A DNA stretch of 43,321 nucleotides from contig JAJZZB010000011.1 of the NCBI GenBank assembly GCA_021797795.1, positions 1 to 43,321 on the forward strand, in the 5' to 3' direction. Positions 431 through 29,906 of the stretch are shown here, in pieces (positions within the stretch are counted from its first letter, which is position 1; each line of letters starts with the position of its first letter). The notes below the pieces were generated by a model. That model made no database searches. It had not been told where the DNA came from and worked only from the letters and a program-made list of their open reading frames with translations. A program made the translations under genes and the position numbers. This DNA comes from Actinomycetes bacterium. Its GTDB lineage: Bacteria > Actinomycetota > Acidimicrobiia > Acidimicrobiales > Bog-793.

Positions 431-1735
431 TCAGGCCTCGCTGTGGGTCACCGGCTCCTCGCCCATCCACTCGCGCAGGGTGTTCTTCAGCTTGATCTGC
501 TGTATGAAGATGTCGTGCTCGGCGCCGAGCGACGGGTCCGAGGTCATGGGCGCCTTGAAGTAGAAGCTCAGCCACTCCTGCACGCCCTTCTCCCCGGCGC
601 GGGCGGCCAGGTCGAAGAACAAGGCGAGGTCCAGCACGAGCGGCGCCGCCAGGATCGAGTCGCGGCACAGGAAGTTCACCTTGATCTGCATCGGATAGCC
701 CATCCACCCGAAGATGTCGATGTTGTCCCAGCCTTCCTTGTTGTCGCCGCGGGGCGGGTAGTAGTTGATCCGCACGACGTGGTCGACGTTCCCGTACAGC
801 TCGGGATAGAGCCCGGGCTCGAGGATGGTGTCGATCACACCGAGCTTCGACACCTCCTTGGATCTGAAGTTCTCGGGATCGTCGAGGACCTCGCCGTCGC
901 GGTTCCCGAGGATGTTGGTCGAGTACCAGCCCCGTAGACCGAGCATCCGCGACTTGAGCCCGGGGGCGAGGATCGTCTTCATGAGGGTCTGGCCGGTCTT
1001 GAAGTCCCGTCCCCCGATGGGCACGCCCTCGCGCTCAGCCAGTGCGACCATGCAGGGAGCATCGCAGCTCAAATTGGGCGCGCCGTTGGCGTATGGGACG
1101 CCCGACATGATCGCCGCGTAGGCGTAGATCTGGCTGGGCGAGATCCTCTCGTCGCTGTCGCGCAGTCCCTGCTCGAAGGAGTCGATCGTGGCGTGCACGT
1201 CGCTCAGCTCGCGGTAAGCCTCGGTCGAGGCGCACCACACCATGACGAGGCGGTCACAGTCGTTCTCGAGGCGGAAGCGCTCGATGTCGGCCATCAGCTG
1301 CTGGGCGAGGTCCATCTTGGAGTTGCCCGTCTTGACCCGCGCTCCCTCGAGCCGGCTCACCCAGCTCTGGTCGAAGACCGCGTCCATGGCAATGATCCCC
1401 TCGAGCTCCCCCGAGACGGCTGCCAGGTCGCGGTCCTCGAGGACGCCGGCGGTACGGGCGGCCTCGAGGGCGTTGGCCGAGATCGGGTCCCATGCGCCGA
1501 ACACGATGTCGTCGAGCGAGGCGAGCGGCACGAAGTCCTTGATGAGCGGGTTGCGCCCCTCCTCCCGACTGCCGAGCCGAATGTGGGCCATCTGGGTGAG
1601 CGAGCCGATGGGAGCGGCGTTGTTCGAGCGGACTGCCAGGACGCCGGCCATGAAGGTGGAGGCGACTGCCCCGAGTCCGGGGGTGAGCACACCGAGGCGT
1701 CCGGTAGCGGGAGCGATGCTGCGCGAGCCAGGCAT
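431..1735 (-). CDS. ino1: Inositol-3-phosphate (myo-inositol-1-phosphate) synthase
   Basis: LGVLTPGLGAVASTFMAGVLAV nucleotide-binding motif, GSLTQMAHIRLGSREEGRNPLIKDFVPLASLDDIVFGAWD, and NPEN..SKEVSKLGVIDTIL-type C-terminal region. Start placed at ATG 1735 rather than GTG 1753 because a TTGACG-N16-TACACT promoter ends 7 nt upstream of it. Confidence 0.9.
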   Translation of the reverse strand: MPGSRSIAPATGRLGVLTPGLGAVASTFMAGVLAVRSNNAAPIGSLTQMAHIRLGSREEGRNPLIKDFVPLASLDDIVFGAWDPISANALEAARTAGVLEDRDLAAVSGELEGIIAMDAVFDQSWVSRLEGARVKTGNSKMDLAQQLMADIERFRLENDCDRLVMVWCASTEAYRELSDVHATIDSFEQGLRDSDERISPSQIYAYAAIMSGVPYANGAPNLSCDAPCMVALAEREGVPIGGRDFKTGQTLMKTILAPGLKSRMLGLRGWYSTNILGNRDGEVLDDPENFRSKEVSKLGVIDTILEPGLYPELYGNVDHVVRINYYPPRGDNKEGWDNIDIFGWMGYPMQIKVNFLCRDSILAAPLVLDLALFFDLAARAGEKGVQEWLSFYFKAPMTSDPSLGAEHDIFIQQIKLKNTLREWMGEEPVTHSEA

Positions 1736-1742
1736 GGCCAGA

Positions 1743-1770
1743 AGTGTAAACACATCTAACTACACGTCAA
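1743..1770 (-). promoter_or_regulatory. Predicted ino1 promoter, TTGACG-N16-TACACT, leaderless start
   Basis: -35 TTGACG (1770..1765), 16-nt spacer, -10 TACACT (1748..1743), then tctggcc and ATG. Confidence 0.6.
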
Positions 1771-1775
1771 CATCT

Positions 1776-1792
1776 GTTCAGCAACGCTGAAC
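1776..1792. promoter_or_regulatory. Candidate LysR operator, perfect 7-bp inverted repeat GTTCAGC-aac-GCTGAAC
   Basis: Perfect dyad containing a T-N11-A LysR box, in the ino1/lysR divergent region; immediately upstream of the ino1 -35 and adjoining the lysR -10 TATTCT (1793-1798). Confidence 0.65.
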
Positions 1793-1805
1793 TATTCTCG
1801 CGATC

Positions 1806-2717
1806 ATGCCAACAGGGCGACAGGCTGGCGAGAGCGCTGTGCCGAACCTCACCGTGCAGCAGCTCGAGTACCTGGTGGCGGTCGCGGACGCGCCCACCTG
1901 GGCGATGGCGGCGGCCGCCGTGGGCGTCACCCCCAGCGCGATGAGCCAGGGCCTGGCCGAGCTCGAGCGGCGCATCGGGATCCGGCTGTTCGAGCGCGAC
2001 GGTCGCCGCCGGGTGCTCGCTGTCGCCGCCGAGCCCGTGCTGGCGCACGCCCGCGAGGTCCTCGCCCGGACCGTCGACCTCGCCCGGTACTCCGACCAGC
2101 TGCGAGAGGGACGGGGCGGGTCGCTGCGCGTCGGGATGATCGACGCCGCCGTCGTCGTCCACTTCTCCCACACCCTGCGCCGCTTCCGCGCCGAGCGCCC
2201 CGAGCTGGACCTGCGTCTCACGGTCGCCAGCTCCGCCACCCTGCTGGACCTGCTCCGCCGTGCCACCCTTGACCTCGCCGTCTGCGTCGAGCCGCCCGGG
2301 CTCGTCGAGTCGATCGCCATCGCCCCCCTCACGAGCGAGACGCTCTTCGTCCACGCTCCTCACCCCGGCCACCTCGACCGGCCGCCCCGCGAGTGGGGCC
2401 CCTGGGTGACCTTCCCCGCCGGGGCGCACACCCGCTCGGTCATCCAGCAGGCGCTGCGCCGCGCAGGCGCGCCCTTCGACGTCGTGGCCGAGTCGCACCA
2501 GCCCGAGGTCCTCCGTGAGATGGTCCGCCTCGGCCTCGGCTGGGCGGTGCTCCCGAGCACCGCCCAGCCGAGCGACACCGCCAACCCGGCGGTCGGCCCC
2601 GCCATCGGACAGCGGCGACTTGTCGTCGCCCGGCGAGCCGACGCAGTCCCGAACCACGCAGGTGAAGCCCTCGAGCACGAGCTCCACGAGGCGGCGGGCG
2701 CCCGCGAAGGGGCGTGA
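1806..2717 (+). CDS. LysR-family transcriptional regulator
   Basis: N-terminal wHTH: LTVQQLEYLVAVADAPTWAMAAAAVGVTPSAMSQGLAELERRIGIRLFERDGRR, followed by a substrate-binding-like domain. Confidence 0.88.
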   Translation: MPTGRQAGESAVPNLTVQQLEYLVAVADAPTWAMAAAAVGVTPSAMSQGLAELERRIGIRLFERDGRRRVLAVAAEPVLAHAREVLARTVDLARYSDQLREGRGGSLRVGMIDAAVVVHFSHTLRRFRAERPELDLRLTVASSATLLDLLRRATLDLAVCVEPPGLVESIAIAPLTSETLFVHAPHPGHLDRPPREWGPWVTFPAGAHTRSVIQQALRRAGAPFDVVAESHQPEVLREMVRLGLGWAVLPSTAQPSDTANPAVGPAIGQRRLVVARRADAVPNHAGEALEHELHEAAGAREGA

Positions 2718-2942
2718 GCACCCTGCACGGGGAGCGGGCCCGCCAGGCGTGCCGGGTCACCTGGCTCGCACACACGAGGCGGAACGGCCGTCGATGCCCC
2801 GAGGCCGGGAGGCGGTGCCCGAGCCTGCCCGGCCCCCGCACGCTCCACGCCGGGCGGAGCCACCCCCCGCCGGCTCCCGAGCGCCCGCTCCCGGACGGCG
2901 CACCAAGCAGTCAGAAGAGCCCAGGTGTGCAACGCTCGTGGC

Positions 2943-3833
2943 ATGGACGTGCACCTCGTCGACGGCACCTATGAGCTGTTCCGGCAGTTCTTCGGTCAGA
3001 AGGCCCGTCGGGTGTCGGCCGCCGGGGACGACGTGGCCGCCGTGGTCGGCGTCCTCGGATCGCTGCTCACCATGATCGGCGAGGGTGCCGACCACCTCGC
3101 CGTGGCGACCGACCACCGCATCGAGTCCTTCCGCAACGAGCTCTGGCCGGGCTACAAGACCTCAGCCGGAGTGGCGCCCGAGCTGCTCGCCCAGTTCCCG
3201 GTCCTCGAGGAGAGCCTCGAGTCCCTCGGCGTGCTCGTCCTCGCGATGGACGAGCTCGAGGCCGACGATGGGCTCGCCTCGGCCGCTGCCGCCGCGGCCG
3301 ACGACCCGGCGGTGGAGCGAGTCCTCATCTGGACGCCCGACAAGGACCTCGCCCAGTGCGTCCGCGGCCACCGGGTGGTGCAGGTCGACCGGCGCAACAA
3401 CGCCGTCCTCGACGAGGACGGTGTGCGGGAGAAGTTCGGCGTCCTTCCTGCCTCCATCCCCGACTACCTCGCCCTCGTCGGGGACAGCGCCGACGGCTTC
3501 CCGGGCCTCGCCGGATGGGGGAAGCACAGCGCCGCCGCCGTGCTCTCGCACTACCACCACCTCGAGAAGATCCCCGAGCGGGCCGACGAGTGGGATCCGG
3601 CCGTTCGGGCACGGCTGCGCAACGCGCCGGCTCTGGCGGCGCGCCTTCGGGCCGAGCGGGAGCTGGCGCTGCTGTTCAGGGGCCTCGCCACCCTTCGCGT
3701 CGACCGCTCTCTTGTGACGGGGACGGCCGCCTTCAGCTGGCGCGGCCCGCGTCCGGACTTCGACGAGACGGCCGGGTTCCTCTCCTCACCCCGCCTCGCC
3801 GAGCGCGCCCTCGAGCTCGCCTCCTCTCGTTGA
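2943..3833 (+). CDS. 5'-3' exonuclease (PIN/FLAP-like, Pol I N-terminal domain-type)
   Basis: MDVHLVDGTYELFRQFF, ELEADDGLAS, WTPDKDLAQCV, PDYLALVGDSADGFPGLAGWGKHSAA (H3TH region). Confidence 0.85.
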   Translation: MDVHLVDGTYELFRQFFGQKARRVSAAGDDVAAVVGVLGSLLTMIGEGADHLAVATDHRIESFRNELWPGYKTSAGVAPELLAQFPVLEESLESLGVLVLAMDELEADDGLASAAAAAADDPAVERVLIWTPDKDLAQCVRGHRVVQVDRRNNAVLDEDGVREKFGVLPASIPDYLALVGDSADGFPGLAGWGKHSAAAVLSHYHHLEKIPERADEWDPAVRARLRNAPALAARLRAERELALLFRGLATLRVDRSLVTGTAAFSWRGPRPDFDETAGFLSSPRLAERALELASSR

Positions 3834-4628: not shown

Positions 4629-4697
4629 GGTCCCGAACCCTACCTGAGCGACCGAGTGGCCTCGGGCGGCCGGCGGCCCCGTCGCTACACTCCCGCC

Positions 4698-5519: not shown

Positions 5520-5535
5520 GGATCCCTCCGGGCGG

Positions 5536-5773: not shown

Positions 5774-6979
<1,206 letters not shown>

Positions 6980-7074: not shown

Positions 7075-7308
7075 ATGAGCGAGTCAGAGCTGTTCGACGG
7101 GACCGAGCCTGTCGAGGAAACCGAGGACGGGTTCCGCGACGCCGCCGAGGACGAGGACGAGGCCTCGGTCGATAGCGAGATCGACTTCGACGACGAGGAG
7201 TACCAGGACACCGAGCTGATCGACGACAAGGAGGCGGGCAACGCCGAGGGCGGCGCCGACGCCCACCTCGACGACCCCGAACAGGCAGGCGACGACTCGA
7301 CCTGGTAG
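7075..7308 (+). CDS. Small highly acidic protein, unknown
   Basis: 77 aa, Asp/Glu-rich; TAGAAC hexamer 6 nt before ATG. Confidence 0.5.
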   Translation: MSESELFDGTEPVEETEDGFRDAAEDEDEASVDSEIDFDDEEYQDTELIDDKEAGNAEGGADAHLDDPEQAGDDSTW

Positions 7309-9994: not shown

Positions 9995-10537
9995 TCAGGC
10001 CGAGGCGCGACCGTCCGGCGCGCTCAGCTGTCCGATCCGGTGGAGGATCGTCCGGCGGCCGCGGGTGGCCACCTCGTAGCGCCGCACGGCGTCGAGCTCG
10101 TCGGGACGAAGCGAGCGGAGCCGCTGAACGACCTGGGAAGCAGCCAGGGTGTCGTAACCCGGAATGGCGAGCGTGGTGACGTCGGGGGTGGACGCCTGGG
10201 GCTCCGGGGCGGCTGCCTCCTTGGCCGCCTCGCTGACCGCGATGGGGACCTCGGTCGCCGGCGGCTGCTCGGCCCGACCTGCCGCCCCGGTCGCCGGGCG
10301 CGCAGGAGCCGGCGACGGCCGGCTGGGCGGCTCGGCGGTGAGGTTGCCGACGCGGCGCTGTGCCTCGCCGACCGCGAGCTTGCCGATCATCTTGGCGAGG
10401 TTGAACTGACCCTCGAGGCGGGCCCGTCCCTTCTCGGCGAGCAGCGGCAGCTCCTCTGCGACGGAGACAGCGAGGCCTACCGGCACGTAGAAGGCGAGGT
10501 CGAGCAGGCGTTCGGGAAGGGTGCGTTCGTCAACCAC
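9995..10537 (-). CDS. Actinobacterial conserved protein (resembles proteins annotated as lipid droplet-associated); function uncertain
   Basis: N-term LPERLLDLAFYVPVGLAVSVAEELP and C-term IPGYDTLAASQVVQRLRSLRPDELDAVRRYEVATRGRRTILHRI. TAGGGT 8 nt before GTG. Confidence 0.65.
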   Translation of the reverse strand: MVDERTLPERLLDLAFYVPVGLAVSVAEELPLLAEKGRARLEGQFNLAKMIGKLAVGEAQRRVGNLTAEPPSRPSPAPARPATGAAGRAEQPPATEVPIAVSEAAKEAAAPEPQASTPDVTTLAIPGYDTLAASQVVQRLRSLRPDELDAVRRYEVATRGRRTILHRIGQLSAPDGRASA

Positions 10538-10558
10538 GCCGCGCGACCCTAACCCTCG

Positions 10559-11492: not shown

Positions 11493-13178
11493 TCAGGCGG
11501 TCGGCCGCCGGGGCCGGACGGGACGCAGCCGCGGCGGGGCGCCCGGCTCCGCCGCGCCGGCGGACCGTCTGGACCTTCTCCGCGCCGAGCGCGCCTCAGC
11601 CCGCTGCTCGGCCTCGAGGCGGCCGAGCTCGGCCTCGCCGCTGTCGACGAAGCTCATCGCCTCGGCGACGCCGCGGTGTCCGGCCTCCTCGGCGATGAGC
11701 CGGTGCATCTCGGTCGCCACCCGGCGGTAGGCCGGATGTCCCTGCGGGCTCGAGCGGAGCTCGATCAAGTGCATCGCCTCCCGGGCGTTCATCTCCATCG
11801 CGAATCGGATGTGGAAGGCGAGCGCCACCGCGTAGCCGGCCTGCTCGGGGAAGTACTTGGCGAGGGCGTCGTGCAACGACCGGGAGCGCTCCAGCTGCTC
11901 GACGTATCGCTCCTGCAGCCCGGCCTCCTCGAGGAGCTCCGGCACCTCGTAGCCGAGGTCCGTCCCGAGCTCCTGCCACTCGATGGAGAGCAGCCGGTGC
12001 CGCTGGAGATCGCGAAAGGCCCCGTAGTCGCAGACGACGTCGAAGCGGTAGGAGGTCGCCTCGAAGGCACGGCCCGGGCGGTGGCGCCGGTTGGCGCGAT
12101 CGCCGACGTAGGCGGCGAGCAGGCGCTGGCGCTCCTCGGCCGGGAGCCGGCCCACCCTCGTGCGCAGCTCCTCCTCGGAAAGGTTCGAGTGCTCATAGGA
12201 GATGGCGGTGAGGATGCGGTCCTCGCCGTCCGCGTCGTAGGCGGTGAGCCGGACCGAGGCGCCGGGCTTCGGCACCTCTTTCTGCCAGAGGGACTCGACC
12301 ACCGCCTCGGTCGCCTCCTCGTTGCGCCGCAGGTAGTCGACCCACACCCCGCCGCGCTCGGCCCGCTCGAGACGGGTGAGGAAGCTCGGGATCACCTTGC
12401 GCAGCTCCTCGAGCATCAGCTCGGCGTAGCGGCGGGCCTCGGGAAGGGGATGGGCCCTCATGCGCAGCAGAAGCTGCTCGTAGCTCTGTCCCGACCCGTA
12501 CATGCCGACGTTGGAGAGGCTGCCGGCAGGCAGCAGCCCCCGCAGGGCGTCGAGGCAGGTGGCGCGGACCGCCGAGCGGTGGGCCAGGGCCGAGACACCC
12601 TCGCCCCGGGGCGAGCGGCGGTTGACGTGCGCCTGCAGGAGGGGCATGAGCTCGCCGTAGGTGTCGAACATGCGGTCCATCTCCCCGACGTAGCGGGCGC
12701 CGAGCGACGAGTCGAGGATGGCGGGGTCGCGGATGTAGCGGTAGTGCCCGCTGTCGAGGCGGGTGTCGTAGGGGATGTAGCGCGTCGACTGCTCGAGGTA
12801 GGACATGAGCCGCCCCCGCTCGAGCACCTTCGTGAGCAGGTTGGACGACTGCTCGCAGGCGAGGTGGACGCCGCCGAGCTGGGCGACCGAGTCGTCGCCG
12901 TACTCGCTGAAGACCCGCTCGTAGAGCGCCTCGGCCCGCTTCAGGCCGACGGTGGCGTCGAGGCTCGTGTCGCCGGTGACGTCGAGATCCTCGACGAACT
13001 CGTCGAGGAAGAGCCGGCGCAGGCTCTTCGGCGAGCGCGAGTAGCGGGCGAACAGCGCCCCCTTCACGACCTCGGGGAGGTTGACGAGAGCGAAGACGGG
13101 TCCGTCGAGATTCGTGAAGTAGCGCGACAGAAGCTCGCGCTCCTCCTCGCTGAAGGTCTCTCCGCGCACGGCACTCAT
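11493..13178 (-). CDS. Double-length ThyX-like (FAD-dependent thymidylate synthase family) protein
   Basis: 561 aa; N-terminal half has ...CEQSSNLLTKVLERGRLMSYLEQSTRYIPYD, C-terminal half has DLQRHRLLSIEWQELG and FAMEMNAREAMHLIELRSSPQGHPAYRRVATEMHRLIAEEAG, both ThyX-like. Canonical RHRxxSxNExSxR motif is degenerate. Confidence 0.75.
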   Translation of the reverse strand: MSAVRGETFSEEERELLSRYFTNLDGPVFALVNLPEVVKGALFARYSRSPKSLRRLFLDEFVEDLDVTGDTSLDATVGLKRAEALYERVFSEYGDDSVAQLGGVHLACEQSSNLLTKVLERGRLMSYLEQSTRYIPYDTRLDSGHYRYIRDPAILDSSLGARYVGEMDRMFDTYGELMPLLQAHVNRRSPRGEGVSALAHRSAVRATCLDALRGLLPAGSLSNVGMYGSGQSYEQLLLRMRAHPLPEARRYAELMLEELRKVIPSFLTRLERAERGGVWVDYLRRNEEATEAVVESLWQKEVPKPGASVRLTAYDADGEDRILTAISYEHSNLSEEELRTRVGRLPAEERQRLLAAYVGDRANRRHRPGRAFEATSYRFDVVCDYGAFRDLQRHRLLSIEWQELGTDLGYEVPELLEEAGLQERYVEQLERSRSLHDALAKYFPEQAGYAVALAFHIRFAMEMNAREAMHLIELRSSPQGHPAYRRVATEMHRLIAEEAGHRGVAEAMSFVDSGEAELGRLEAEQRAEARSARRRSRRSAGAAEPGAPPRLRPVRPRRPTA

Positions 13179-13191
13179 GGCCCAGGTGAGA

Positions 13192-15354
13192 TTACGGGGC
13201 GCTCTCGCCGCGGGCGTGGATGGTCACTGACGTGGGCTCCACCGCCTCCTCGGGCGCCTCGAGGGTCTCGGCGAGGCTCACCTGCGACGAGGCGGCCACG
13301 ACTCCGCGCAGCAGGCGGTGGCCCGCCCGGTCGGCCGCCCGCCGGGTGTCGTCGGTCGCCGCCACCGAGGCGACCTGGCGGAGGAGGTCGATGACCTGCT
13401 TCATGTTGCGGACGAAGTCCCCGCCTGTCATGAGGCGGCGGGCCGGCCGCCCCTGGCGGCCGCGGCCGCCCCGGGGCCGCTCGGGCGTGAGCACCCGGGC
13501 GAGCTCGCGCCCCCGCGCCCAGTCGCGAGCGAGGACGGCGAAGCCGGCGTCGACACCCCGGGTGACCGGGAGCTGGCGGGCGCGCTCCTCCTCGGACAGC
13601 TTCCCGGAGAGGTCGGCGATCGCCTCGAGGCGCTCGCCGACGATGCCGGGAGGCGGTTCGAGGGCACCCTCCCGCTCGCGTCGCGCCTCGAATGAGAACG
13701 ACGAGACGACCGCCGCCAGGGCGTCGGGCTCGAGGCCGTCGAGCAGGCCGGCCCGCAGGCTCTCGGCGATGAGGAGGTCCGCCTCGTGGTAGAGCCCGGC
13801 CAGAAGCTCACCGTCGGGGGTCACCGACCATCCCCGGACGAAGCCGTGGGCCTCGAGCATCTGAAGGACGTTCGTCAGCTGCCCACCGAGGTCCTCCTTC
13901 GACAGCCACTGGGCGAACGAGGAGGTGACGATGCGGTAGGCCTCGGCGCGCTCGAAGCGGCGGACGAGGCTCACCGCCAGGTTGTAGGTGGGACGGAACG
14001 AGGAGGTGAGGGCCCGGCCAGGCGCGCCGGCGAGGCGGGCGACGTCGTCGAAGGTGTGAAAGGGCGAGGCGAGGACGACGGCGTAGCCGACCTCGTCGAT
14101 GCCACGACGGCCCGCCCGGCCCGTCAGCTGGGTGTACTCCCCCGGCGTCAGCTCCTCGTGACCGGCGCCGCTGAACTTGGTGAGGTCCTCGATCACGACC
14201 GAGCGGGCCGGCATGTTGATCCCGAGCGCCAGGGTCTCGGTAGCGAAGACCGCCTTCACGAGCGCCTTGGAGAAGCACTCCTCGACGGCCTCCCTGAAGG
14301 GTGGCACCATCCCGGCGTGGTGCGGCGCCACGCCGGCCTCGAGGGCCGAGAGGAAGCGGCCGTAACCGAGCACGCCGAGGTCGTCGTCCGAGAGCGCCTC
14401 GACGTGGTCTTCGAGGATCGCCCGGACCTGCCGGCGCTCCTCGGGCGAGGTCAGCCGCAGCCCCTCGTCGAGGCAGGCTCGCACAGCGTCGTCGCAGCCC
14501 GCCCGGGAGAAGATGAAGTAGATGGCGGGGAGCAGCTCCGCCGCCCGCAGCCGTTCGACGACCTCGGCGCGGCGGGGACGGTAGGTGAGGGGTCGACTGC
14601 GCCCCTGCTGGTGGGTCCTCGTCCTCGGCCGGGAGACCCTCGGGCCGCGCCGGACCATGAGCTCGTCGAGCTGGAATGCCCGGGCGTTGGGCCGGGCGTC
14701 CTCGAAGACCGGCAGCAGGTGGATGCGCTCGGAGGAGCGGTCGCCGATGGCGAACAGGTCGTGGAGCACGACCGGCCGGCGGTCCTCCCGGACGACGCCG
14801 GTGTCGCCCCGCACGTTGCCGATCCAGGCGGCGAGGTCGTCGGCGTTGGCGACGGTGGCGGAGAGGCAGACGAGGCGCACCTCCGGCGGCGCCCCGAGGA
14901 TGACCTCCTCCCAGACGCCGCCCCGGTAGGGGTCCTCGAGGAAGTGCACCTCGTCGAGGACGACGTAGCCGAGCGAGGCGAGCGAGCGTCGCTCGGCGTG
15001 GATCATGTTGCGGAGCACCTCGGTCGTCATGACGACGACGGGTGCGCCCCCGTTGATGGAGTTGTCCCCGGTGAGCAGGCCCACCCGCTCGATCCCGTAG
15101 GCGCGGACGAGATCGCCGAACTTCTGGTTCGAGAGCGCCTTCAGCGGTGTCGTGTAGAAGGCCCTCACGCCCTCGGCGAGCGCCCGGTGGACGGCGTACT
15201 CGGCGACCACCGTCTTGCCCGCTCCCGTCGGGGCGGTGACGAGCACCGAGCGCTTGGAGTCGATGAGGTCCATCGCCTCCAGCTGGAAGCGGTCGAGCGC
15301 GTACGGCCGGGCGGCCTCGAAGGAGGCCCGCACCGGGTCGCCACCCGCCCTCAC
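13192..15354 (-). CDS. helY: Ski2/Mtr4-like DEAD/DEAH-box helicase (HelY type)
   Basis: VTAPTGAGKTVVAEYAV, VLDEVHFLEDPYRG, CLSATVANADDLAAWIG, FATETLALGINMPARSVVIEDLTKF, TQLTGRAGRRGIDEVGYAVV. GTG 15354 overlaps the tatC stop (GTGA). Confidence 0.92.
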   Translation of the reverse strand: MRAGGDPVRASFEAARPYALDRFQLEAMDLIDSKRSVLVTAPTGAGKTVVAEYAVHRALAEGVRAFYTTPLKALSNQKFGDLVRAYGIERVGLLTGDNSINGGAPVVVMTTEVLRNMIHAERRSLASLGYVVLDEVHFLEDPYRGGVWEEVILGAPPEVRLVCLSATVANADDLAAWIGNVRGDTGVVREDRRPVVLHDLFAIGDRSSERIHLLPVFEDARPNARAFQLDELMVRRGPRVSRPRTRTHQQGRSRPLTYRPRRAEVVERLRAAELLPAIYFIFSRAGCDDAVRACLDEGLRLTSPEERRQVRAILEDHVEALSDDDLGVLGYGRFLSALEAGVAPHHAGMVPPFREAVEECFSKALVKAVFATETLALGINMPARSVVIEDLTKFSGAGHEELTPGEYTQLTGRAGRRGIDEVGYAVVLASPFHTFDDVARLAGAPGRALTSSFRPTYNLAVSLVRRFERAEAYRIVTSSFAQWLSKEDLGGQLTNVLQMLEAHGFVRGWSVTPDGELLAGLYHEADLLIAESLRAGLLDGLEPDALAAVVSSFSFEARREREGALEPPPGIVGERLEAIADLSGKLSEEERARQLPVTRGVDAGFAVLARDWARGRELARVLTPERPRGGRGRQGRPARRLMTGGDFVRNMKQVIDLLRQVASVAATDDTRRAADRAGHRLLRGVVAASSQVSLAETLEAPEEAVEPTSVTIHARGESAP

Positions 15355-16635: not shown

Positions 16636-16675
16636 CTGGCCAGTGTACCGGGGCGCAACAGCCCGCTCGGAACGC

Positions 16676-18034
16676 TCAGATCGCCTCGATCAGGCGCTCC
16701 ACCCGCTCGTCGTGCGAGCGGAAGGGGTCCTTCAGCAGCACCGTTCGCTGGGTCTGGTCGTTCAGCTTCAGGTGCACCCAGTCGACCGTGAAGTCCCTCC
16801 GCCGCTCCTTCGCCCTCCGGATGAACTCCCCGCGCAGGCGGGCCCTCGTCGTCTCGGGCGGGTGCTCCATCGCCTTGTCGATGGTGTCGTCGTCGGTGAT
16901 CCGCTCGACCCTCCCCTTGGCCTGCATGAGGTAGAAGACGCCTCGGCGGCGGTCGACGTCGTGGTACTGCAGGTCGAGCAGCGCCACCCTCGGGTGACCG
17001 AGCGGCAGCTGGTGGCGCTCGCGGAAGGCCTCGACGATGCGGTGCTTGATGACCCAGTCGACCTCCCGGTCGAGGCTGAAGGGGTCCTTCTCGATCCCCT
17101 CGACGCAGTGCTGCCACATCTCGAGGGCCTGGTGCTCGAGCGGAGGCAGCCCCCGCTGCTCGTCGTAGCGGATGGCTCGGCCGAGGTACTCCTTCTGGAT
17201 GTCGAGGGCGCTCGCCTCCCGGCCGTTCGCCAGCCGGACCGGGCGGCGGCAGGTGAGGTCGTGGCTGATCTCCCTGATCGCCCGGATCGGGTCCTCCAAG
17301 GTGAGGTCGCGCAGCACCACGCCGGGCTCCTCCAGCATCCGGAGCAGGATGCTCGTCGTCCCGACCTTCAAGAAGGTGGCGTACTCGCTCATGTTCGAGT
17401 CGCCGACGATGACGTGGAGGCGCCGGAAGCGCTCGGCGTCGGCGTGCGGCTCGTCACGGGTGTTGATGATCGGGCGGCTCCGCGTCGTCGCCGACGAGAC
17501 GCCCTCCCAGATGTGCTCGGCCCGCTGGGACAGGCAGAACATCGCCCCCCTGGCAGTCTGGAGGATCTTGCCCGCTCCCGAGTAGATCTGGCGGGAGACG
17601 AAGAACGGGATGAGCACCTGGGCGTAGTGGGAGAAGTCGTCCCGCCGGCTCGTCAGGTAGTTCTCGTGGCAGCCGTAGGAGTTGCCGGCCGAGTCGGTGT
17701 TGTTCTTGAACAGGTAGACCACCCCGCGGATGCCCTCGTCGCGAAGGCGGGCCTCGGCGGAGCGGACCAGGCTCTCGAGGATGCGCTCCCCGGCCTTGTC
17801 GTGGCAGACGAGGTCGGCGATGGAGTCGCACTCGGGCGTGGCGTACTCGGGGTGGCTCCCGACGTCGAGGTAGAGCCGTGCGCCGTTCTCGAGGAAGACG
17901 TTGCTCGAGCGCCCCCAGCTCACGACGCGGCGGAACAGGTAGCGGGCCACCTCGTCCGGGCTGAGGCGTCGCTGCCCGCGGAGCGTGCAGGTGACGCCGT
18001 ACTCGTTCTCGAGGCCGAAGATCCTGCGATCCAC
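16676..18034 (-). CDS. pafA: Pup--protein ligase PafA
   Basis: [97 protein letters not shown] 18034 favoured over ORF-track ATG 18070 by homolog-like N-terminus and promoter position. Confidence 0.93.
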
Positions 18035-18042
18035 TCCAATGA

Positions 18043-18052
18043 ACGGTAGCCT
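18043..18052. promoter_or_regulatory. Bidirectional promoter core: overlapping -10 elements for pafA (TACCGT, minus) and the DUF2007-like gene (TAGCCT, plus)
   Basis: Sequence ACGGTAGCCT: minus TACCGT 18048..18043, plus TAGCCT 18047..18052 share TA; each ends exactly 8 nt before its start codon. pafA -35 TTGATG 18070..18065, 16-nt spacer. Confidence 0.6.
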
Positions 18053-18060
18053 CGCCACAG

Positions 18061-18480
18061 ATGCCATCAACCGGACGCATGCGGCACCTCACGACCGTGC
18101 AGGGCTCCTTCCACGGCCGGGTGATCGCCGCACGTCTCGGCGCCGAGGGGATCCTGGTCGACCTGAGGGGGCTCTCCGAGGGCCCCTACCCCCTGCAGGG
18201 CGCCGTCGAGATCTTCGTCGGCGAGGAGCAGCTCGCCCTGGCGCGGGAGATCCTCCTCGCCGACGAGGTCGACGCCGCCGTCGACGCCGACCTCGTCGAG
18301 CTGGCGTTCCGCTCGACCGATCCGGCCGGCGAGGGTGCCGTCGGCTCACCCCCGCCCTTCGACGGGGAGAGCGAGGTCCCCCGGGCCCCGCGGCGCCGGC
18401 GCGAGCTGCTCGGCACCGCCGTCGTCGTGGCGGTCGTCGTCATCCTCATCGTGGTCGGCGTCGTCGCCGTGCGGGGCTGA
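18061..18480 (+). CDS. DUF2007-like domain protein with C-terminal TM segment, unknown function
   Basis: [56 protein letters not shown] followed by [22 protein letters not shown]. Confidence 0.7.
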
Positions 18481-18487
18481 GGCCCGC

Positions 18488-19207
18488 TCAGCCCTCTCCG
18501 GTCGCGCCGGCGGGCTCGGTCTCGCCACCCTCGCCGAGCAGCTCGGCGAGCTCCCCGTTTCCGAGGCGGCGGAATGCCCGGCGGTCCGGTCCCTCCTCGA
18601 GCACAGCGGCCTCGAGCTCGCCCGACCCGAGAGTCCGGTCCGGCCCGGCCAGCGCCTCCACGCAGTGCTGCACCGCCTCGGCGAGCGAGCAGTCCTCCCG
18701 GTAGGAGGCCGAGAGCCGGGCCGTGATGGTGTCGGCGTCGCCCCCGAGGCAGGCGAAGCCCACCTCGTCGACGACGGTCCCGTCGTAGGCGATGTGGTAC
18801 AGCTGGTGCGAGGTGGCGTCCCGCCCGAGCTCGGCCACGAGGATCTCCACCTCGAGCGGCTTCATCTCGTGGGTGAAGACCTGCCCGAGGTACTGGGCGT
18901 AGAGGTTGGCGAGCGACCGGGCGTCGACGTCCTCGCGGGAGTAGGAGAAGCCCTTGGTGTCGGCGTGGCGGACGCCGGCGACGCGGAGCTGGTCGAACTC
19001 GTTGTACTTGCCGACACCGGCGAAGGCGACCCGGTCGTAGATCTCGCTGATCTTGTGCAGGGTCCTCGAGGGGTTCTCGGCCACGATGAGGATGCCCCGG
19101 TCGTAGACGGCGGCCACGAGGGCACGACCACGGGCGATACCCTTCTGGGCATACTCGGCCCGGTCCTTCATGACCTGCTCGGGGGCCACGTAGAAGGGCA
19201 TGCTCAT
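18488..19207 (-). CDS. prcA: 20S proteasome subunit alpha
   Basis: [69 protein letters not shown]. 4-bp ATGA overlap with prcB. Confidence 0.97.
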
Positions 19208-20073
19208 GAGGGCTGGCTCCCGTGCTCGGACGCCGAGGTGGCGTCAGCGGAACGATCGGGCCGGTAGCGGCCCTCCTCGAGGAGGGCGGAGAACCGCTCG
19301 GCCACCGCCTCGTCGCTCAGCCGCCGGTAGCCGTCCTCGTCGACGACGGCGACGACCGGGTAGATGCCGCGGATGGGGTCGGGCCCGCCGGTCGCCGAGT
19401 CCTCGTCGGCAGCCTCGTACAGGGCCCTCACGGCGAGCTGGACGGCCTCCTCCTCGCTCAGGTCGGGACGGAAGCCGAGCTTGATCGTGTTCTTGGCGTC
19501 CCGGCCGCCCGAGCCGGTGGCATGGAAGTCGAGCTCCTCGTAGCGGCCGCCGGTGACGTCGAAGGAGAAGATCCGCCCGTCGCGGCGCCGCTCGTCGTAG
19601 CCGGCGAACAGCGGGACGACCACCAGCCCCTCCATCGCGAGGGGCAGGTTGGCCCGCACCATCTGGGCGAGCTGGTTCGCCTTCCCCTCGAGGCTCAGCG
19701 TGGTCCCCTCCACCTTCTCGTAGTGCTCGAGCTGGGTCTGGAAGAGGCGCACCATCTCGACCGCCGGGCCGGCGGCCCCGGCGATGGCGACGGCCGAGTA
19801 GCGGTCGGCCGGGAAGACCTTCTCGATCCCCCGATGGGCGATCGAGTGCCCCTCGGTGGCCCGGCGGTCACCGGCCATCACGATCCCGGCCGACGAGCGC
19901 AGCGCCACGATCGTGGTCCCGTGGGCGACTCCCGGCAGCCGGTTCGGCGCCCCGGCGCCCGCGGCTCCGCCCGGGTGGGGCTCGGCGTAGTGGGGCTCAC
20001 CGGACATGCGCCGGAGAAGCTGGGCGAAGTTCGACCCGGGGTCCTCCGCCATCGGAAAGAGCGGCAGCGTCAT
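19204..20073 (-). CDS. prcB: 20S proteasome subunit beta (propeptide, cleavage predicted before TTIVAL)
   Basis: ...[42 protein letters not shown]..., catalytic Thr at the predicted mature N-terminus. Confidence 0.97.
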
Positions 20074-20099
20074 CGGGCCGCAGGCTACTGCCTTGCCGC

Positions 20100-20300
20100 C
20101 TACTGGCCGCCCTTTTGGACATAGTTGCGGACGAACTCCTCCGCGTTGTCCTCGAGCACCTCGTCGATCTCGTCGAGGAGGTCGTCGATCTCGGCCTTCA
20201 GCTTCTCGCCACGCTCGGTCGAGGTGGAGGTCTCCTCCTCCTCGACCGTGGTCGTGTCACGGCTGGCGGCCGGCCGGCGCTTCTGTTCCCGTTCTGCCAT
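20100..20300 (-). CDS. pup: Prokaryotic ubiquitin-like protein Pup, GGQ C-terminus
   Basis: 66 aa: [68 protein letters not shown] taggagacgag before ATG. Hidden inside spurious track ORF 20100..21968. Confidence 0.96.
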
Positions 20301-20308
20301 CTCGTCTC

Positions 20309-21799
20309 CTAGGAGCCCAGCCGCTCGAGCAGATCGGCCGGGCTCTCGCATCCGGTGAACAACGTAGCGACGTGGGTGGCTGTTCCCCTGAGCGGCTCCA
20401 TCATCGGGACCCTCCGGAGAGGGTCGGCACCGACGTCGAACACGACAGAGTCCCAGTTCGCCGCCACGATCGCCGAGGCGAACATCTGCAGGCAGCGGCC
20501 GCGGAAGAAGGCCCGGGTGGTCTCCGGCGGCTCGGTCACCGCCCGCTCGACCGCCTCGGTCGACACGAGCCGCTCCATGTCGAGGCGGCTGAAGAGCGAC
20601 TTGGACGCCCGGACGTCGTGGTACTGCAGGTCGAGCGCAGCCAGGCGGCGATCGGTCCAGGCGAGCCCGTGGCGCTGGCGGTACCCCTCGATCAGCCGGC
20701 GCTTGGCGACCCAGTCGAGCTCGGAGGAGAGCGAGGCGGGGTCCGACTCGAGCGCGCCGAGGACGTGCTCCCAGCGCTCGAGGACCTGTCGGCCGACCTC
20801 CTCGTCGCCGAGGGCCGACATGCCGCGCTCCTCGGCGTACTTGCGGGAGCGGGTGAACAGCTCCCACTGGAGCTCGACCCCAGTGATCCGCCCCCCGTCC
20901 ACGAGCTCGATCGTCGCGTGCAGATCCGGGTCGTGGGAGACCGCCCGCATGGCGGCGACAGGGGTGGCGAGGGTCAGGTCGCGGCCGGCGTCGAAGTCGT
21001 CCTCGATCATGGCGAGGACGAAGGCCGTCGTCCCGACCTTCAAGAAGGTGGCCACCTCGGCGAGGTTGGCGTCCCCGACGATCACGTGCAGGCGGCGGTA
21101 CCTCTGGGGGTCGGCGTGGGGTTCGTCGCGGGTGTTGATGATGGGGCGCTTCAGGGTCGTCTCGAGGCCGACCTCCTCCTCGAAGAAGTCGGCCCGCTGG
21201 CTCAGCTGGAAGGGGACCCGCTCGTCGCTGTCGGTGTTCTCCTGGCCGACCTTGCCCGCCCCGGTGAAGACCTGCCGGCTCACGAAGTGCGGCGTCAGGC
21301 GCCGGACGATCCGGGCGAAGGGCACCGCACGGTCCACGAGGTAGTTCTCGTGGGTCCCGTACGAGTTCCCCTTTCCGTCGGAGTTGTTCTTGTAGACGAT
21401 GATCTCCTCGCCCGGGGGGAGCAGGTGGCGGGCCGCCTCCATCGAGCGGGCGAGGATCACCTCGCCGGCCCGGTCGAAGGTCACGACCTCGAGGGGGTTC
21501 GAGCACTCCGGCGTCGAGTACTCCGGATGGGCATGGTCGACGTAGTAGCGGGCGCCGTTGGTGAGGACGGCGTTCACGAGATGGGTCTCGACCTCGGGCG
21601 GGAGCGCCCCGTCGCGGGCGAAGCCCCTGGCGTCGCGCCCGGGCGACTCGTCCTCGAAGTCCCAGCCGATACGGCGCTCGAGGCGGGCCACGTAGCCGTT
21701 GATGAGCAGCGAGGAGGCCGTGGTGGGGCTCATGTCGCCGCTCGAGACGGCGTGGACCCCGTACTCGGTCTCGATGCCGCAGACCTTTGTGATGGCCAC
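20309..21799 (-). CDS. dop: Pup deamidase/depupylase Dop
   Basis: AITKVCGIETEYGVHAVSSGDMSPTTASSLLINGYV, HPEYSTPECSNPLEVVTFDRAGE, VYKNNSDGKGNSYGTHENYLVDR; GTG start with TAGCGT 6 nt upstream. Confidence 0.96.
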   Translation of the reverse strand: MAITKVCGIETEYGVHAVSSGDMSPTTASSLLINGYVARLERRIGWDFEDESPGRDARGFARDGALPPEVETHLVNAVLTNGARYYVDHAHPEYSTPECSNPLEVVTFDRAGEVILARSMEAARHLLPPGEEIIVYKNNSDGKGNSYGTHENYLVDRAVPFARIVRRLTPHFVSRQVFTGAGKVGQENTDSDERVPFQLSQRADFFEEEVGLETTLKRPIINTRDEPHADPQRYRRLHVIVGDANLAEVATFLKVGTTAFVLAMIEDDFDAGRDLTLATPVAAMRAVSHDPDLHATIELVDGGRITGVELQWELFTRSRKYAEERGMSALGDEEVGRQVLERWEHVLGALESDPASLSSELDWVAKRRLIEGYRQRHGLAWTDRRLAALDLQYHDVRASKSLFSRLDMERLVSTEAVERAVTEPPETTRAFFRGRCLQMFASAIVAANWDSVVFDVGADPLRRVPMMEPLRGTATHVATLFTGCESPADLLERLGS

Positions 21800-21867
21800 G
21801 TTCGGACGCTACCCCACCCCGGCGGCGACGATGCCGCACGCGGCCGGCGGCCGCCCGGCAAGGGCAG

Positions 21868-25344: not shown

Positions 25345-25348
25345 CGGC

Positions 25349-25884: not shown

Positions 25885-25901
25885 CGACGAGACCCTAGCA
25901 A

Positions 25902-26309
25902 CTACTCCCCCGGAGTTATCACGTAGGTCGAGGAGGCACGGCCGACGAGGCGGCCGGAGGGGTCGGTGACGCTCGCCTCGACGAAGACGACCCTCGAGCC
26001 CCCCGACACGACCGTCGCCTCGCAGGTGAGGACGGTGCCGATCCCGACGGGCGCGAGGAAGCTCGTCTTCATCTCGGCGTTGGCCACGCTCAGTCTGCCG
26101 GCCGAGCGAGCGCGGGCGTAGGTGACCGCCGAGGCCCCCATGGCCGAGTCGCAGAAGGCGGCGAGGAAGCCGCCCTGGAGGATGCCGGCCGGGTTGGCGA
26201 AGCGATCGTCGGCCGTCATCTCCCAGCGCGTCCGCCCGGGCTCGGACTTGTCCTTCACGACCATGCCGAGGGTGAGGTCGCAGTTGGGAGGGACCTGGAC
26301 GCCGCTCAC
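25902..26309 (-). CDS. Hotdog-fold thioesterase (PaaI type)
   Basis: [27 protein letters not shown]...[57 protein letters not shown]. Confidence 0.88.
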
Positions 26310-26956
26310 GGCTCGAGGGCCGAGCGGAAGAAGGCCCGCAGGTGCTCGAGGCGATGCTCGAGCTCCTCGCGCGACAGCGGGTCCCGCCCGAGCACCGCCT
26401 CGAGGAAGGGGAGGTCGCTGAACCAGGTGGCGAGGGCGGCGTAGCCGGTGAGGATGAGCTGCTCGGGGTCGTAGCGGCGGAAGCGGCCGAGCTCCATCTG
26501 GCGCTCGAAGAAGGCGACGGCGCGGGCCATCATCGGGCGGACCGCCTCGCCGAGCTCGTGGGCGAGGCGGCCGCCGCCGGCGAGGGACTCCTGGCGGACC
26601 AGGCGGACGAAGTCGGGGTTCTCGGTGAAGAACTGGAAGCCGATGGTGAGGACCCGGTCGACCTGCTCCCAGCCGTCGCGGGGCTGGTCGATCGCCTCGG
26701 CGACCCGGGCGACCCAGTCTGCGAAGGAGACCTCGAGGACCTGGCGGTAGAGCGTCTCTTTCGAGGGGAAGTGGTGGAGCAGGCTCTGGCGCCGGATGCC
26801 GACCAGGCCGGCGATGTCGTTGAGGGAGGTGCCGTCGTAGCCGCGATCGGCGAAGCAGCGCAGGGCCGCCCGCAAGATGAGCTCCCGGGTGGGGGCGGGC
26901 GCCCGGTCGGACGATCCGGACCCCCCGGACTCGTCCCTCAGCGCGGCGGAGCTCAC
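26306..26956 (-). CDS. TetR-family transcriptional regulator
   Basis: [56 protein letters not shown] 26956 preferred (TAGCGT 7 nt upstream) over GTG 26986. Confidence 0.92.
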
Positions 26957-26970
26957 CGCCGGCACGCTAG

Positions 26971-27002
26971 CCGACCGGCAGGTCACCTACCGACCGGCAG
27001 GT
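26971..27002. promoter_or_regulatory. Tandem TetR operator candidates: two CCGACCGGCAGGT copies, 19 bp apart
   Basis: Identical 13-mers at 26971-26983 and 26990-27002 between divergent -10s (minus TAGCGT 26969..26964; plus TAGGCT 27012-27017). Second copy sits in imperfect palindrome CTACCgaCCGGcaGGTAG. Confidence 0.65.
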
Positions 27003-27024
27003 AGGCGCTGCTAGGCTCCCCGCC

Positions 27025-27837
27025 GTGCCATCTGTGTTGCTCGCCGTCATCATCGGCTTCTCCGTCTCGCAGATCGCCGTCGTCTGCACGACCGTCTTCC
27101 TCCACCGGGCGCTCTCCCACAAGGCGCTCAGCTTGAGCCCGGGCGTCCGGCTCGCCTTCCGGATCGTCACCTGGCTGACGACCGGCATCCGGCCCCGCCA
27201 GTGGGTCGCCGTCCACCGCAAGCACCACGCCTTCACCGACGTCGAGGGGGACCCCCACTCGCCGCTGCTGCTCGGCTTCTGGAAGGTGCAGCTCGGCAAC
27301 GTGCTCCTCTACCGCAAGGCGGCCCGCGACCGGGAGATCGTCCGCAGGTACGCCCGGGACCTGCCGCCCGACCGCCTCGACCGCACCCTCTTCGACCACG
27401 CCTTCCTCGGTCTCGGCATCGGGGTCGGGATCTTGTGCCTGGCCTTCGGCTGGCAGGTCGGCCTCATGGCGGCCGGCTTCCACGTCGTGATCTACCTGTC
27501 GGTCAACTCCTCGGTGAACGCCGTCGGCCACTACTACGGCAAGAAGGTCTACGAGAACTCGGCCCGCAACAACCAGTGGCTCGCCTGGCTGACCGCCGGC
27601 GAGGGACTGCACAACAACCACCACGCCGCCCCGACCTCGGCCCGCCTCGCCCTCGGCCCAGGCGAGATCGACCCCGGCTGGTGGATCATCTCGCTGCTCG
27701 TCAGGACCGGCCAGGCCAAGGTGCGCCTGAGCGAGGTGCGCCTCGCCCGCCCGCGGGAGGCCGGCGAGGACGCCGAGCCGGCGATGGCCGCCGTCGGCGC
27801 CGGGGTCGAGGAAGAACCCTCCTCGCCGACCCGCTGA
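27025..27837 (+). CDS. Acyl-CoA/fatty acid (delta-9 type) desaturase
   Basis: Histidine boxes HRALSH, HRKHH, HNNHH; GTG start. Confidence 0.93.
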   Translation: MPSVLLAVIIGFSVSQIAVVCTTVFLHRALSHKALSLSPGVRLAFRIVTWLTTGIRPRQWVAVHRKHHAFTDVEGDPHSPLLLGFWKVQLGNVLLYRKAARDREIVRRYARDLPPDRLDRTLFDHAFLGLGIGVGILCLAFGWQVGLMAAGFHVVIYLSVNSSVNAVGHYYGKKVYENSARNNQWLAWLTAGEGLHNNHHAAPTSARLALGPGEIDPGWWIISLLVRTGQAKVRLSEVRLARPREAGEDAEPAMAAVGAGVEEEPSSPTR

Positions 27838-27899
27838 GAGCAGGCGCCGGGCGCCGCGATGACGTCGCGGTCGGGCGAGCGAGCCTTTAGGCTGCCGCG

Positions 27900-29906
27900 G
27901 TGACCCACTTCGGCGACGACAACGACCTCGAGGCTCGCGGCATCAACGTCGTGCGCGGGCTCGCGATGGACGCTCCACAGCGGGCGAACTCCGGCCATCC
28001 CGGCACCGCCATGGCACTCGCCCCGCTCGCCCACGTGCTGTTCACCCGGATCATGTCCTACGACGCCGGCGACCCTCGCTGGTTCGACCGTGACCGCTTC
28101 GTCCTCTCGAACGGGCACGCCTCGATCCTGCAGTACTCGATGCTCTACCTCACCGGCTTCGGCCTCGAGCTCGAGGACCTGCGCCAGTTCCGCCAGTTCG
28201 GCTCCCGCACGCCCGGGCACCCCGAGGTGCACCACCTCCCGGGCGTGGAGGTGACGACCGGCCCCCTCGGCCAGGGCTTCGCCCAGTCCGTCGGCCTCGC
28301 CATGGCAGAGCAGGTCGTGCGGCACCGCTTCGGACCCGGCCTGTGCGACCACCACGTCTTCGGGATCTGCGGCGACGGCGACCTCATGGAGGGTGTCAGC
28401 CACGAGGCAGCCTCGCTCGCCGGCCACCTCGGCCTCGGCCGGCTCGTGTTCACCTACGACGACAACCACGTCACCATCGACGGCCCGACCGAGCTCGCCT
28501 ACGACGACGACGTCCCGGGGCGCTTTGAGTCCTACGGCTGGCAGGTGATCCGCCTCGGTGATGTCGCCAACGACCTCGATGTGATCGAGGGCGGGCTCCG
28601 AGAGGCGATGGCGGAGTCGGAGCGGCCCTCGCTGCTCGTGCTCCGCAGCCACATCGGGTGGCCCTCGCCGCACCGCACCGACACCAAGGAGGCCCACGGC
28701 GAGCCGCTCGGGGCCGAGGAGATCCGCCTCACCAAGGAGCTGCTCGGGCTGCCGCCCGAGGAGGAGTTCTTCGTCCCGCCCGAGGTGCTCTCCTACTACC
28801 GGGAGGCCGGTCGCCGCGGCGGAAAGGCGCGCAGCCGCTGGCTGTCGCGGCGCCAGGCGATGGACGAGCAGGAGCGGGCCGACTTCGAGGCCTGCCTCGC
28901 CGGCGGGGGCGTGAAGGGGTGGGAGGAGCTGCTGCCCTCCTTCGAGCCGGGCGGCAGGCTCGCCACCCGCAAGGCGATCAACCAGGTGCTCGTGAAGACC
29001 GCCCCGCGGATCCCCGGCCTCGTCTCCGGGTCGGCCGACCTCACGGGCAACACCGGGACCGCCCTCGAGCTCTCCGACGCCATGTCGAAGGGCAACCCGG
29101 GCGGCCGCCAGGTCCACTACGGCATCCGGGAGTTCGCCATGATGAGCGCCCTCAACGGCATGGCGCTGCACAACGGCGTGCTCCCCGTCGGCGGCACCTT
29201 CTTCGCCTTCAGCGACTACTGCCGGCCGGCCGTCCGCCTCGGTGCCATGTCGGGCGCGCACTCGATCGTGTTCTTCACCCACGACTCGATCGGCCTCGGC
29301 GAGGACGGCCCGACCCACCAGCCCATCGAGCAGCTCGCCTCCCTGCGGGCCATGCCGGGGCTCCGTCTCATCCGCCCGGCCGACGCCAACGAGTGCGCGG
29401 CCGCCTGGCAGGTCGCCGTCGACGGGGAGGGCCCCACGGCCCTCGTCCTCACCCGCCAGGACGTCCCGGTCCTCGCGGGCACCCGCGAGCTCGCCCCCGA
29501 GGGCGTCGCCCGGGGCGGCTACGTCCTTCAGCAGGCCGGCGGCGGGCAGCCCGCCATCGTCCTCGTCGGCACAGGGAGCGAGCTGCAGCACTGCGTGGCA
29601 GCACGCGAGCTGCTCGAGTCCGAGGGCGTGGCGACGAGAGTCGTCTCGCTCCCCTCCTTCGACCTGTTCGAGGCCCAGGAGGAGGGGTATCGGGACGAGG
29701 TGCTGCCCCCTCAGGTCCCGACCGTCGCCGTCGAGGCCGGCTCGCGCTTTGGCTGGGACCGCTATGCAGAGGCCACCGTCACGATCGACCACTTCGGCGC
29801 CTCGGCGCCCGGTGCCCGCAACATGGCCGAGTTCGGCTTCACCGGCGAGCACGTCGCCGACGTCGCCCGCCGGCTGCTCGCCCACCACAAGGAGAGGACC
29901 CCATGA
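27900..29906 (+). CDS. tkt: Transketolase
   Basis: AMDAPQRANSGHPGTAMALAPLAHVLF, TTGPLGQGFAQSVGLAMAE, GDGDLMEGVSHEAASLAGHLGLGRLVFTYDDNHVTIDGPTELAY, HDSIGLGEDGPTHQPIEQLASLRAMP. Confidence 0.97.
   Translation: MTHFGDDNDLEARGINVVRGLAMDAPQRANSGHPGTAMALAPLAHVLFTRIMSYDAGDPRWFDRDRFVLSNGHASILQYSMLYLTGFGLELEDLRQFRQFGSRTPGHPEVHHLPGVEVTTGPLGQGFAQSVGLAMAEQVVRHRFGPGLCDHHVFGICGDGDLMEGVSHEAASLAGHLGLGRLVFTYDDNHVTIDGPTELAYDDDVPGRFESYGWQVIRLGDVANDLDVIEGGLREAMAESERPSLLVLRSHIGWPSPHRTDTKEAHGEPLGAEEIRLTKELLGLPPEEEFFVPPEVLSYYREAGRRGGKARSRWLSRRQAMDEQERADFEACLAGGGVKGWEELLPSFEPGGRLATRKAINQVLVKTAPRIPGLVSGSADLTGNTGTALELSDAMSKGNPGGRQVHYGIREFAMMSALNGMALHNGVLPVGGTFFAFSDYCRPAVRLGAMSGAHSIVFFTHDSIGLGEDGPTHQPIEQLASLRAMPGLRLIRPADANECAAAWQVAVDGEGPTALVLTRQDVPVLAGTRELAPEGVARGGYVLQQAGGGQPAIVLVGTGSELQHCVAARELLESEGVATRVVSLPSFDLFEAQEEGYRDEVLPPQVPTVAVEAGSRFGWDRYAEATVTIDHFGASAPGARNMAEFGFTGEHVADVARRLLAHHKERTP

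What the first reader, a model, noticed from the sequence alone, without database searches (positions are those of the whole stretch)
1735..27902. Pervasive leaderless-transcript signature: TANNNT hexamer ending 6-8 nt before the start codon in about 15 genes
Gaps between the -10-like hexamer and the start codon: ino1 TACACT-N7-ATG; lysR TATTCT-N7-ATG; ABC ATPase TAGGGT-N8-TTG; class IV aminotransferase TACACT-N6-ATG; acidic protein TAGAAC-N6-ATG (imperfect); gene at 10537 TAGGGT-N8-GTG; tatA TACACT-N6-GTG; pafA TACCGT-N8-GTG; DUF2007-like TAGCCT-N8-ATG; prcB TAGCCT-N8-ATG; dop TAGCGT-N6-GTG; holin-like 25884 TAGGGT-N7-ATG; tetR TAGCGT-N7-GTG; desaturase TAGGCT-N7-GTG; tkt TAGGCT-N6-GTG. These starts lack a clear SD, while genes with a strong SD (acyl-CoA dehydrogenase, arc, ferredoxin, pup, tal, pgi, gnd) do not show the hexamer at this position. 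Leaderless mRNAs are established in actinobacteria. Here the signal is strong enough to correct start codons (ino1, pafA, tetR) and to suggest a lineage -10 consensus near TAGNNT with weak -35 dependence.
Basis: partly seen in the sequence, partly recalled or inferred. Interest (0 to 1): 0.7.

Follow-up and report, generated by a model that had tools for sequence, protein, structure and literature searches.

The report
Leaderless gene starts in Acidimicrobiales
In this actinobacterium about one in three genes at the head of a divergent transcription unit carries its promoter's -10 box 6 to 9 bases before the start codon, so its mRNA almost certainly begins at the start codon; this is a known actinobacterial habit, here confirmed and shown to be conserved for the genes of the Pup-proteasome system.

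Summary
Of the 15 listed starts, 14 carry an exact TANNNT with the stated gap; the 15th (TAGAAC, gene at 7075) is not TANNNT, and that class is not enriched. In 1.49 Mb of the same genome (1,200 starts called without looking at the hexamer), TANNNT lies 6/7/8/9 nt before the start 56/41/35/14 times, against 3.1 at other gaps, and only in frame. Shine-Dalgarno tetramers are near absent from these genes (5% against 37-48%), and no -35 signal was seen. The -10 box is footprinted across 80 Acidimicrobiia loci: pafA 59/78, dop 54/72, prcB 29/69, against prcA 0/70 and tatC 0/60. Leaderless transcription is the best explanation, though no TSS data were available for this lineage. It is already described for Actinobacteria (PMC3160421, PMC3898074), so the result is a new member of a known kind. 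One local extra: pafA and a DUF2007-like gene are head to head, 26 bp apart, with two -10 boxes sharing one central TA, conserved in 21 distinct loci. I tested whether that arrangement is a genome-wide class; it is not.

The parts
1743..1748 (-). -10-like TACACT, N7 before ino1 ATG (1735)
   Evidence: 15 of 20 ino1 loci including the window's own keep it
1793..1798 (+). -10-like TATTCT, N7 before lysR ATG (1806)
4637..4642 (-). -10-like TAGGGT, N8 before ABC ATPase TTG (4628)
   Evidence: TTG is rare among leaderless starts (2 of 209), so the exact start is less sure
4686..4691 (+). -10-like TACACT, N6 before class IV aminotransferase ATG (4698)
10546..10551 (-). -10-like TAGGGT, N8 before GTG 10537
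   Evidence: only 2 of 13 orthologues keep it
13189..13194 (-). TAATCT, N10 before ATG of a thyX-like gene (13178); orthologues keep TANNNT at 8-9 nt
   Evidence: 22 of 34 orthologues; Pfam Thy1
16642..16647 (-). -10-like TACACT, N6 before tatA GTG (16635)
   Evidence: 9 of 9 orthologues keep it
18043..18048 (-). -10-like TACCGT, N8 before pafA GTG (18034)
   Evidence: 59 of 78 orthologues keep TANNNT 6-9 nt before the start
18047..18052 (+). -10-like TAGCCT, N8 before ATG of a DUF2007-like gene (18061)
   Evidence: Pfam DUF2007 matches 15 of 18 aligned relatives, not this protein itself
18043..18052 (.). Shared element ACGGTAGCCT: two opposed -10 boxes overlapping in one central TA; start codons 26 bp apart
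   Evidence: 21 distinct orthologous loci (window included) keep the geometry, usually ACGGTACCGT or ACGCTACCGT
20082..20087 (-). -10-like TAGCCT, N8 before prcB ATG (20073)
   Evidence: 29 of 69 orthologues
21806..21811 (-). -10-like TAGCGT, N6 before dop GTG (21799)
   Evidence: 54 of 72 orthologues
25892..25897 (-). -10-like TAGGGT, N7 before holin-like ATG (25884)
   Evidence: weakly conserved, 2 of 17
26964..26969 (-). -10-like TAGCGT, N7 before tetR GTG (26956)
27012..27017 (+). -10-like TAGGCT, N7 before fatty acid desaturase GTG (27025)
27888..27893 (+). -10-like TAGGCT, N6 before tkt GTG (27900)
   Evidence: 4 of 5 orthologues have TANNNT 6-9 nt before a nearby start

Best explanation
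These hexamers are -10 boxes of housekeeping-sigma promoters placed so that RNA polymerase starts at, or 1-3 nt before, the first base of the start codon. The genes are therefore transcribed as leaderless mRNAs and translated without a Shine-Dalgarno sequence. Shown here: the hexamer, its offset and frame specificity, its exclusion of SD, its link to operon-leading genes and its conservation across the order. Inferred: which sigma factor, the exact TSS, and translation by direct ribosome binding to the 5'-terminal ATG/GTG. Roughly 11-15% of all genes in this genome, and about a third of divergently oriented genes, carry the strict signal.
For: (1) Offset: gaps 6/7/8/9 = 56/41/35/14 against 3.1 per gap; near zero at 0-5; the edge at 6 is what is expected if the start codon must lie wholly inside the transcript. 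(2) Frame: in-frame candidates peak (73/68/51/19), out-of-frame candidates are flat. (3) Operon position: 33% of divergent genes against 5% of genes at most 25 bp behind a same-strand gene. (4) SD exclusion: SD tetramers 5% (shuffled 10%) in these genes; 37-48% (shuffled 23-26%) elsewhere; SD pentamers 0% against 25%. (5) Footprint: pafA 59/78, dop 54/72, prcB 29/69, tatA 9/9, thyX-like 22/34, ino1 15/20, while prcA, tatC, arc and pup have 0-2; shifted-gap controls in the same loci are mostly 0-3 (up to 10 for dop and 9 for prcB). (6) A second, complete genome of the order (G002): gaps 6-9 = 33/20/11/6 against 0.7, and 39 of 116 divergent genes. (7) Start codons are ATG/GTG in 207 of 209.
Against: No transcription start site has been mapped in this organism or, as far as the papers searched here show, in its order. 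The genome is a draft in 324 contigs; 1.49 of 3.8 Mb was analysed. Gene calls come from my own codon-usage caller, so the fraction is approximate. 'Any in-frame start' counts carry about 3% chance hits per gene. Several window genes (10537, 25884) show no footprint.
Confidence: 0.95

Rival explanations
1. Chance: TANNNT plus a start codon occurs by luck among many candidate starts, and the reader picked the starts to fit.
Against: With starts chosen by coding score alone the peak stands 11-18 fold above background at gaps 6-8; out-of-frame controls are flat; orthologues keep it. P about 2e-13 for the window.
Confidence: 0.01
2. The hexamers are -10 boxes, but the start codons used lie further downstream, so that short 5' UTRs exist.
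For: About half of genes elsewhere lack an SD, so SD-less leaders are possible; some chosen starts differ from the coding-score start.
Against: The hexamer is phased to in-frame start codons at 6-9 nt and to no other offset; pafA and ino1 orthologues align at this start.
Confidence: 0.04
3. The hexamer is a translation signal (an unusual ribosome-binding element), not a promoter element.
For: Fixed distance to the start codon and mutual exclusion with SD.
Against: It has the TANNNT form of the actinobacterial -10 box (PMC3898074, PMC6448022), it marks operon-leading rather than operon-internal genes, and its distance equals the -10 to +1 distance.
Confidence: 0.02

Closest known systems
TA-led (leaderless) genes of Actinobacteria, Zheng et al. 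2011 (PMC3160421)
   Same: TANNNT with its first T about 12 bp before the start; no SD; high GC; average 19.2% of genes in 86 actinobacterial genomes, matching the 11-19% seen here.
   Different: Acidimicrobium is not mentioned in that paper's main text; here the signal is shown by footprinting and tied to the Pup-proteasome genes.
Mycobacterial leaderless transcriptome (PMC3898074, PMC6448022)
   Same: TANNNT -10 boxes; about a quarter of genes with a TSS are leaderless (26% and 24%); leaderless status tends to be conserved between species.
   Different: There it rests on mapped TSSs; here on sequence only.
Bidirectional promoters with overlapping -10 elements (PMC10268837, PMC12825309)
   Same: At pafA/DUF2007-like the opposed -10 boxes overlap in a TA and would give TSSs about 23 bp apart, one of the common spacings (18, 10, 23 bp).
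   Different: Here both products would be leaderless mRNAs of two conserved protein genes; divergent transcription is not shown.

Membership tests
Bacterial leaderless (TA-led) genes | TANNNT at a fixed distance of about 12 bp (first T) before the start codon, above chance | tested here: met
   own genome; second genome
Bacterial leaderless (TA-led) genes | No Shine-Dalgarno sequence before these starts | tested here: met
   5% against 37-48%
Bacterial leaderless (TA-led) genes | Start codon is ATG or GTG | tested here: met
   207 of 209
Bacterial leaderless (TA-led) genes | Mapped TSS within 5 nt of the start codon | not testable with these tools
   no RNA data held for this lineage
Bidirectional promoter (pafA/DUF2007-like pair) | Opposed -10 elements overlapping, predicted TSSs 7-25 bp apart, conserved | tested here: met
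   21 distinct loci with ANNNTANNNT 5-8 nt from both start codons; TSS positions themselves are inferred
Bidirectional promoter (pafA/DUF2007-like pair) | RNA made in both directions | not testable with these tools
   needs TSS mapping
Bidirectional double-leaderless promoters as a genome-wide class | Shared-TA geometry more frequent than expected from one-sided leaderless promoters | tested here: not met
   788 sites against 782 in the one-base-shifted control over 67 low-background genomes

The most novel reading that the evidence does not exclude
In Acidimicrobiales the Pup ligase gene pafA and a probably membrane-anchored DUF2007-like protein are expressed as two leaderless mRNAs from a single near-palindromic -10 element, start codons only about 22-27 bp apart. 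RNA polymerase could bind it in only one orientation at a time, which would couple the two genes and hint that the DUF2007-like protein works with pupylation.
Probability: 0.5. Interest if true: 0.5.

Novelty: new member of a known kind. Interest (0 to 1): 0.35.

Why it matters
Leaderless starts change gene-start annotation in a little-studied, mostly uncultured order: a gene finder that expects an SD will misplace starts such as ino1 and pafA. They also show that the operon-leading genes of the Pup-proteasome system (dop, prcB, pafA), though not the internal ones, keep leaderless promoters across the class. The conserved pafA/DUF2007-like promoter gives a concrete and testable candidate partner for pupylation.

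Tried and rejected
(a) A genome-wide class of double-leaderless bidirectional promoters. With spacing-shifted or reversed-pattern controls it looked very strong (own genome 12 against 1; 788 against 81 over 67 genomes). Those controls are wrong for the question, because a real promoter on one side plus a chance A and CAT/CAC on the other side already produces such sites. Moving the A by one base gave the same count (own 12 against 13; order 788 against 782), so the general claim is rejected and only the pafA locus stands. (b) Palindromic co-variation of the two arms at pafA: none beyond composition (9 perfect palindromes, shuffles 9.6). (c) A -35 element in leaderless promoters: no spacing stands out. 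(d) TAGAAC as a -10 variant: not enriched. (e) In very GC-rich sets my gene caller, when trained on that set, converged badly; rerun with the window genome's codon model it behaved, so the GC>0.72 and G002 rows should be ignored. (f) Start correction of tetR: homologues match from residues 2-22 onward, which is compatible but not decisive.

Full report
WHAT THE WINDOW IS. The window is G000:C307:1-43321 of a 3.8 Mb draft genome in 324 contigs; it is 72% GC. PafA searches return Acidimicrobiales and Acidimicrobiia genomes at 72-92% identity, so the organism belongs to or near Acidimicrobiales (Actinomycetota). The window carries ino1, tat genes, the Pup-proteasome genes (arc, dop, pup, prcB, prcA, pafA) and pentose-phosphate genes.

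THE OBSERVATION. Fourteen of the fifteen listed starts have an exact TANNNT with the stated gap. The fifteenth (TAGAAC, 7075) is not TANNNT. Two further genes (7505, gap 9; 13178, gap 10) were missed.

GENOME-WIDE TEST. I fetched stretches of the same genome, 1.49 Mb with the window, called genes by codon usage with no use of upstream sequence, and counted TANNNT at every gap. Gaps 6, 7, 8, 9 gave 56, 41, 35, 14; other gaps average 3.1; gaps 0-5 gave 0-3. Allowing any in-frame start near the coding onset gave 73, 68, 51, 19 against 8.7; out-of-frame start codons gave no peak. The edge between gap 5 and gap 6 is informative: with +1 seven bases after the -10 box, gap 6 puts +1 on the first base of the codon, and anything shorter would cut the codon. 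Gaps 7-9 allow a leader of 0-3 nt (inference).

WHICH GENES. 33% of genes with a divergent upstream neighbour carry the signal, 25% of those 26-80 bp behind a same-strand gene, 11% of those further behind, and 5% of those at most 25 bp behind one, as expected of promoters. SD tetramers occur in 5% of these starts (shuffled 10%) against 37-48% elsewhere (shuffled 23-26%); SD pentamers 0% against 25%. ATG and GTG are used in about the same proportions as elsewhere (96 and 111 of 209). A second, complete genome of the order (G002) gives 33, 20, 11, 6 at gaps 6-9 against 0.7, with 34% of divergent genes.

MOTIF. Position 3 prefers G (42-66% by gap against 34% in control hexamers). The base right after the hexamer is almost never A (3 of 178 against 11% in controls, P about 1e-7). 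No -35 signal appears at any spacing. VANNNT also has an excess at gaps 6-8 (104 against 64), so the strict count is a lower bound.

FOOTPRINT. In 80 Acidimicrobiia loci around pafA, TANNNT lies 6-9 nt before the orthologous start in 59/78 pafA, 54/72 dop, 29/69 prcB, 22/34 thyX-like and 9/9 tatA, and in 0/70 prcA, 0/60 tatC, 2/63 pup and 0/10 arc. Upstream sequences are otherwise dissimilar. For ino1 it is 15/20, the window's own included. This supports the corrected starts of pafA and ino1; tetR remains compatible only.

THE pafA / DUF2007-LIKE PAIR. pafA (18034, -) and an ORF of 139 codons (18061, +) are head to head with 26 bp between start codons. Their -10 boxes share the central TA of ACGGTAGCCT, 18043-18052. 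The ORF is a real gene: relatives occur in 35 of 99 genomes of the order, share 31-49% identity with the window protein with 11 invariant residues, mostly with a C-terminal hydrophobic segment, and 15 of 18 match Pfam DUF2007 (best E 3.6e-7; the window protein alone does not). In 21 distinct loci the same shared-TA element sits 5-8 nt from both start codons, most often ACGGTACCGT. Opposed -10 boxes in this register would start RNAs about 23 bp apart, one of the common spacings of bidirectional promoters (PMC12825309). Transcription in both directions is inferred.

A CLAIM I TESTED AND DROPPED. Shared-TA double starts looked strongly enriched against spacing-shifted controls (788 against 81 over 67 genomes of the order), but a control that moves only the A by one base gives 782, and the same holds in my own sequence set. 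One-sided leaderless promoters with a chance partner explain the numbers. Only the pafA pair, conserved as an orthologous unit, stands.

KNOWN OR NEW. TANNNT about 12 bp before the start as a mark of leaderless genes is established (PMC3160421: average 19.2% of genes in 86 actinobacterial genomes), and experimentally for M. tuberculosis (26% of genes with a TSS, PMC3898074) and M. smegmatis (24%, PMC6448022). Gene finders already model it (PMC9581028). Searching the open papers for 'leaderless genes' with 'Acidimicrobi' found none, so this order seems undescribed in that respect, but the kind is known. The pafA/DUF2007-like promoter is a small new variant combining two known things.

Noticed in passing
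window 18043-18052 and 18034/18061: pafA and a DUF2007-like gene with a probable C-terminal membrane segment are divergent, 26 bp apart, with two -10 boxes sharing a TA; kept in 21 distinct Acidimicrobiales loci.
   Followed up: yes
whole genome G000 (178 leaderless starts): The base right after the -10 hexamer is almost never A (3 of 178 against 11% in control hexamers), a discriminator preference I cannot explain.
   Followed up: partly
window 1735/1806, 4628/4698, 26956/27025: Three divergent gene pairs, each with both starts leaderless, have start codons 69-71 bp apart; genome-wide the spacing of such pairs is broad, so this is probably coincidence.
   Followed up: partly
window 16676-21799: Within the Pup-proteasome region the operon-leading genes dop, prcB and pafA are leaderless and the followers pup and prcA are not, and this split is conserved across the class.
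   Followed up: yes
window 11493-13178: A thyX-like protein of 561 aa has two matched stretches of Pfam Thy1 (best 311-498), suggesting a duplicated domain; its -10 box is at N10 here and at 8-9 nt in relatives.
   Followed up: no
G025 (order): This genome has 27 shared-TA double-start sites against 5 in the one-base-shifted control, unlike the order as a whole; not examined further.
   Followed up: no
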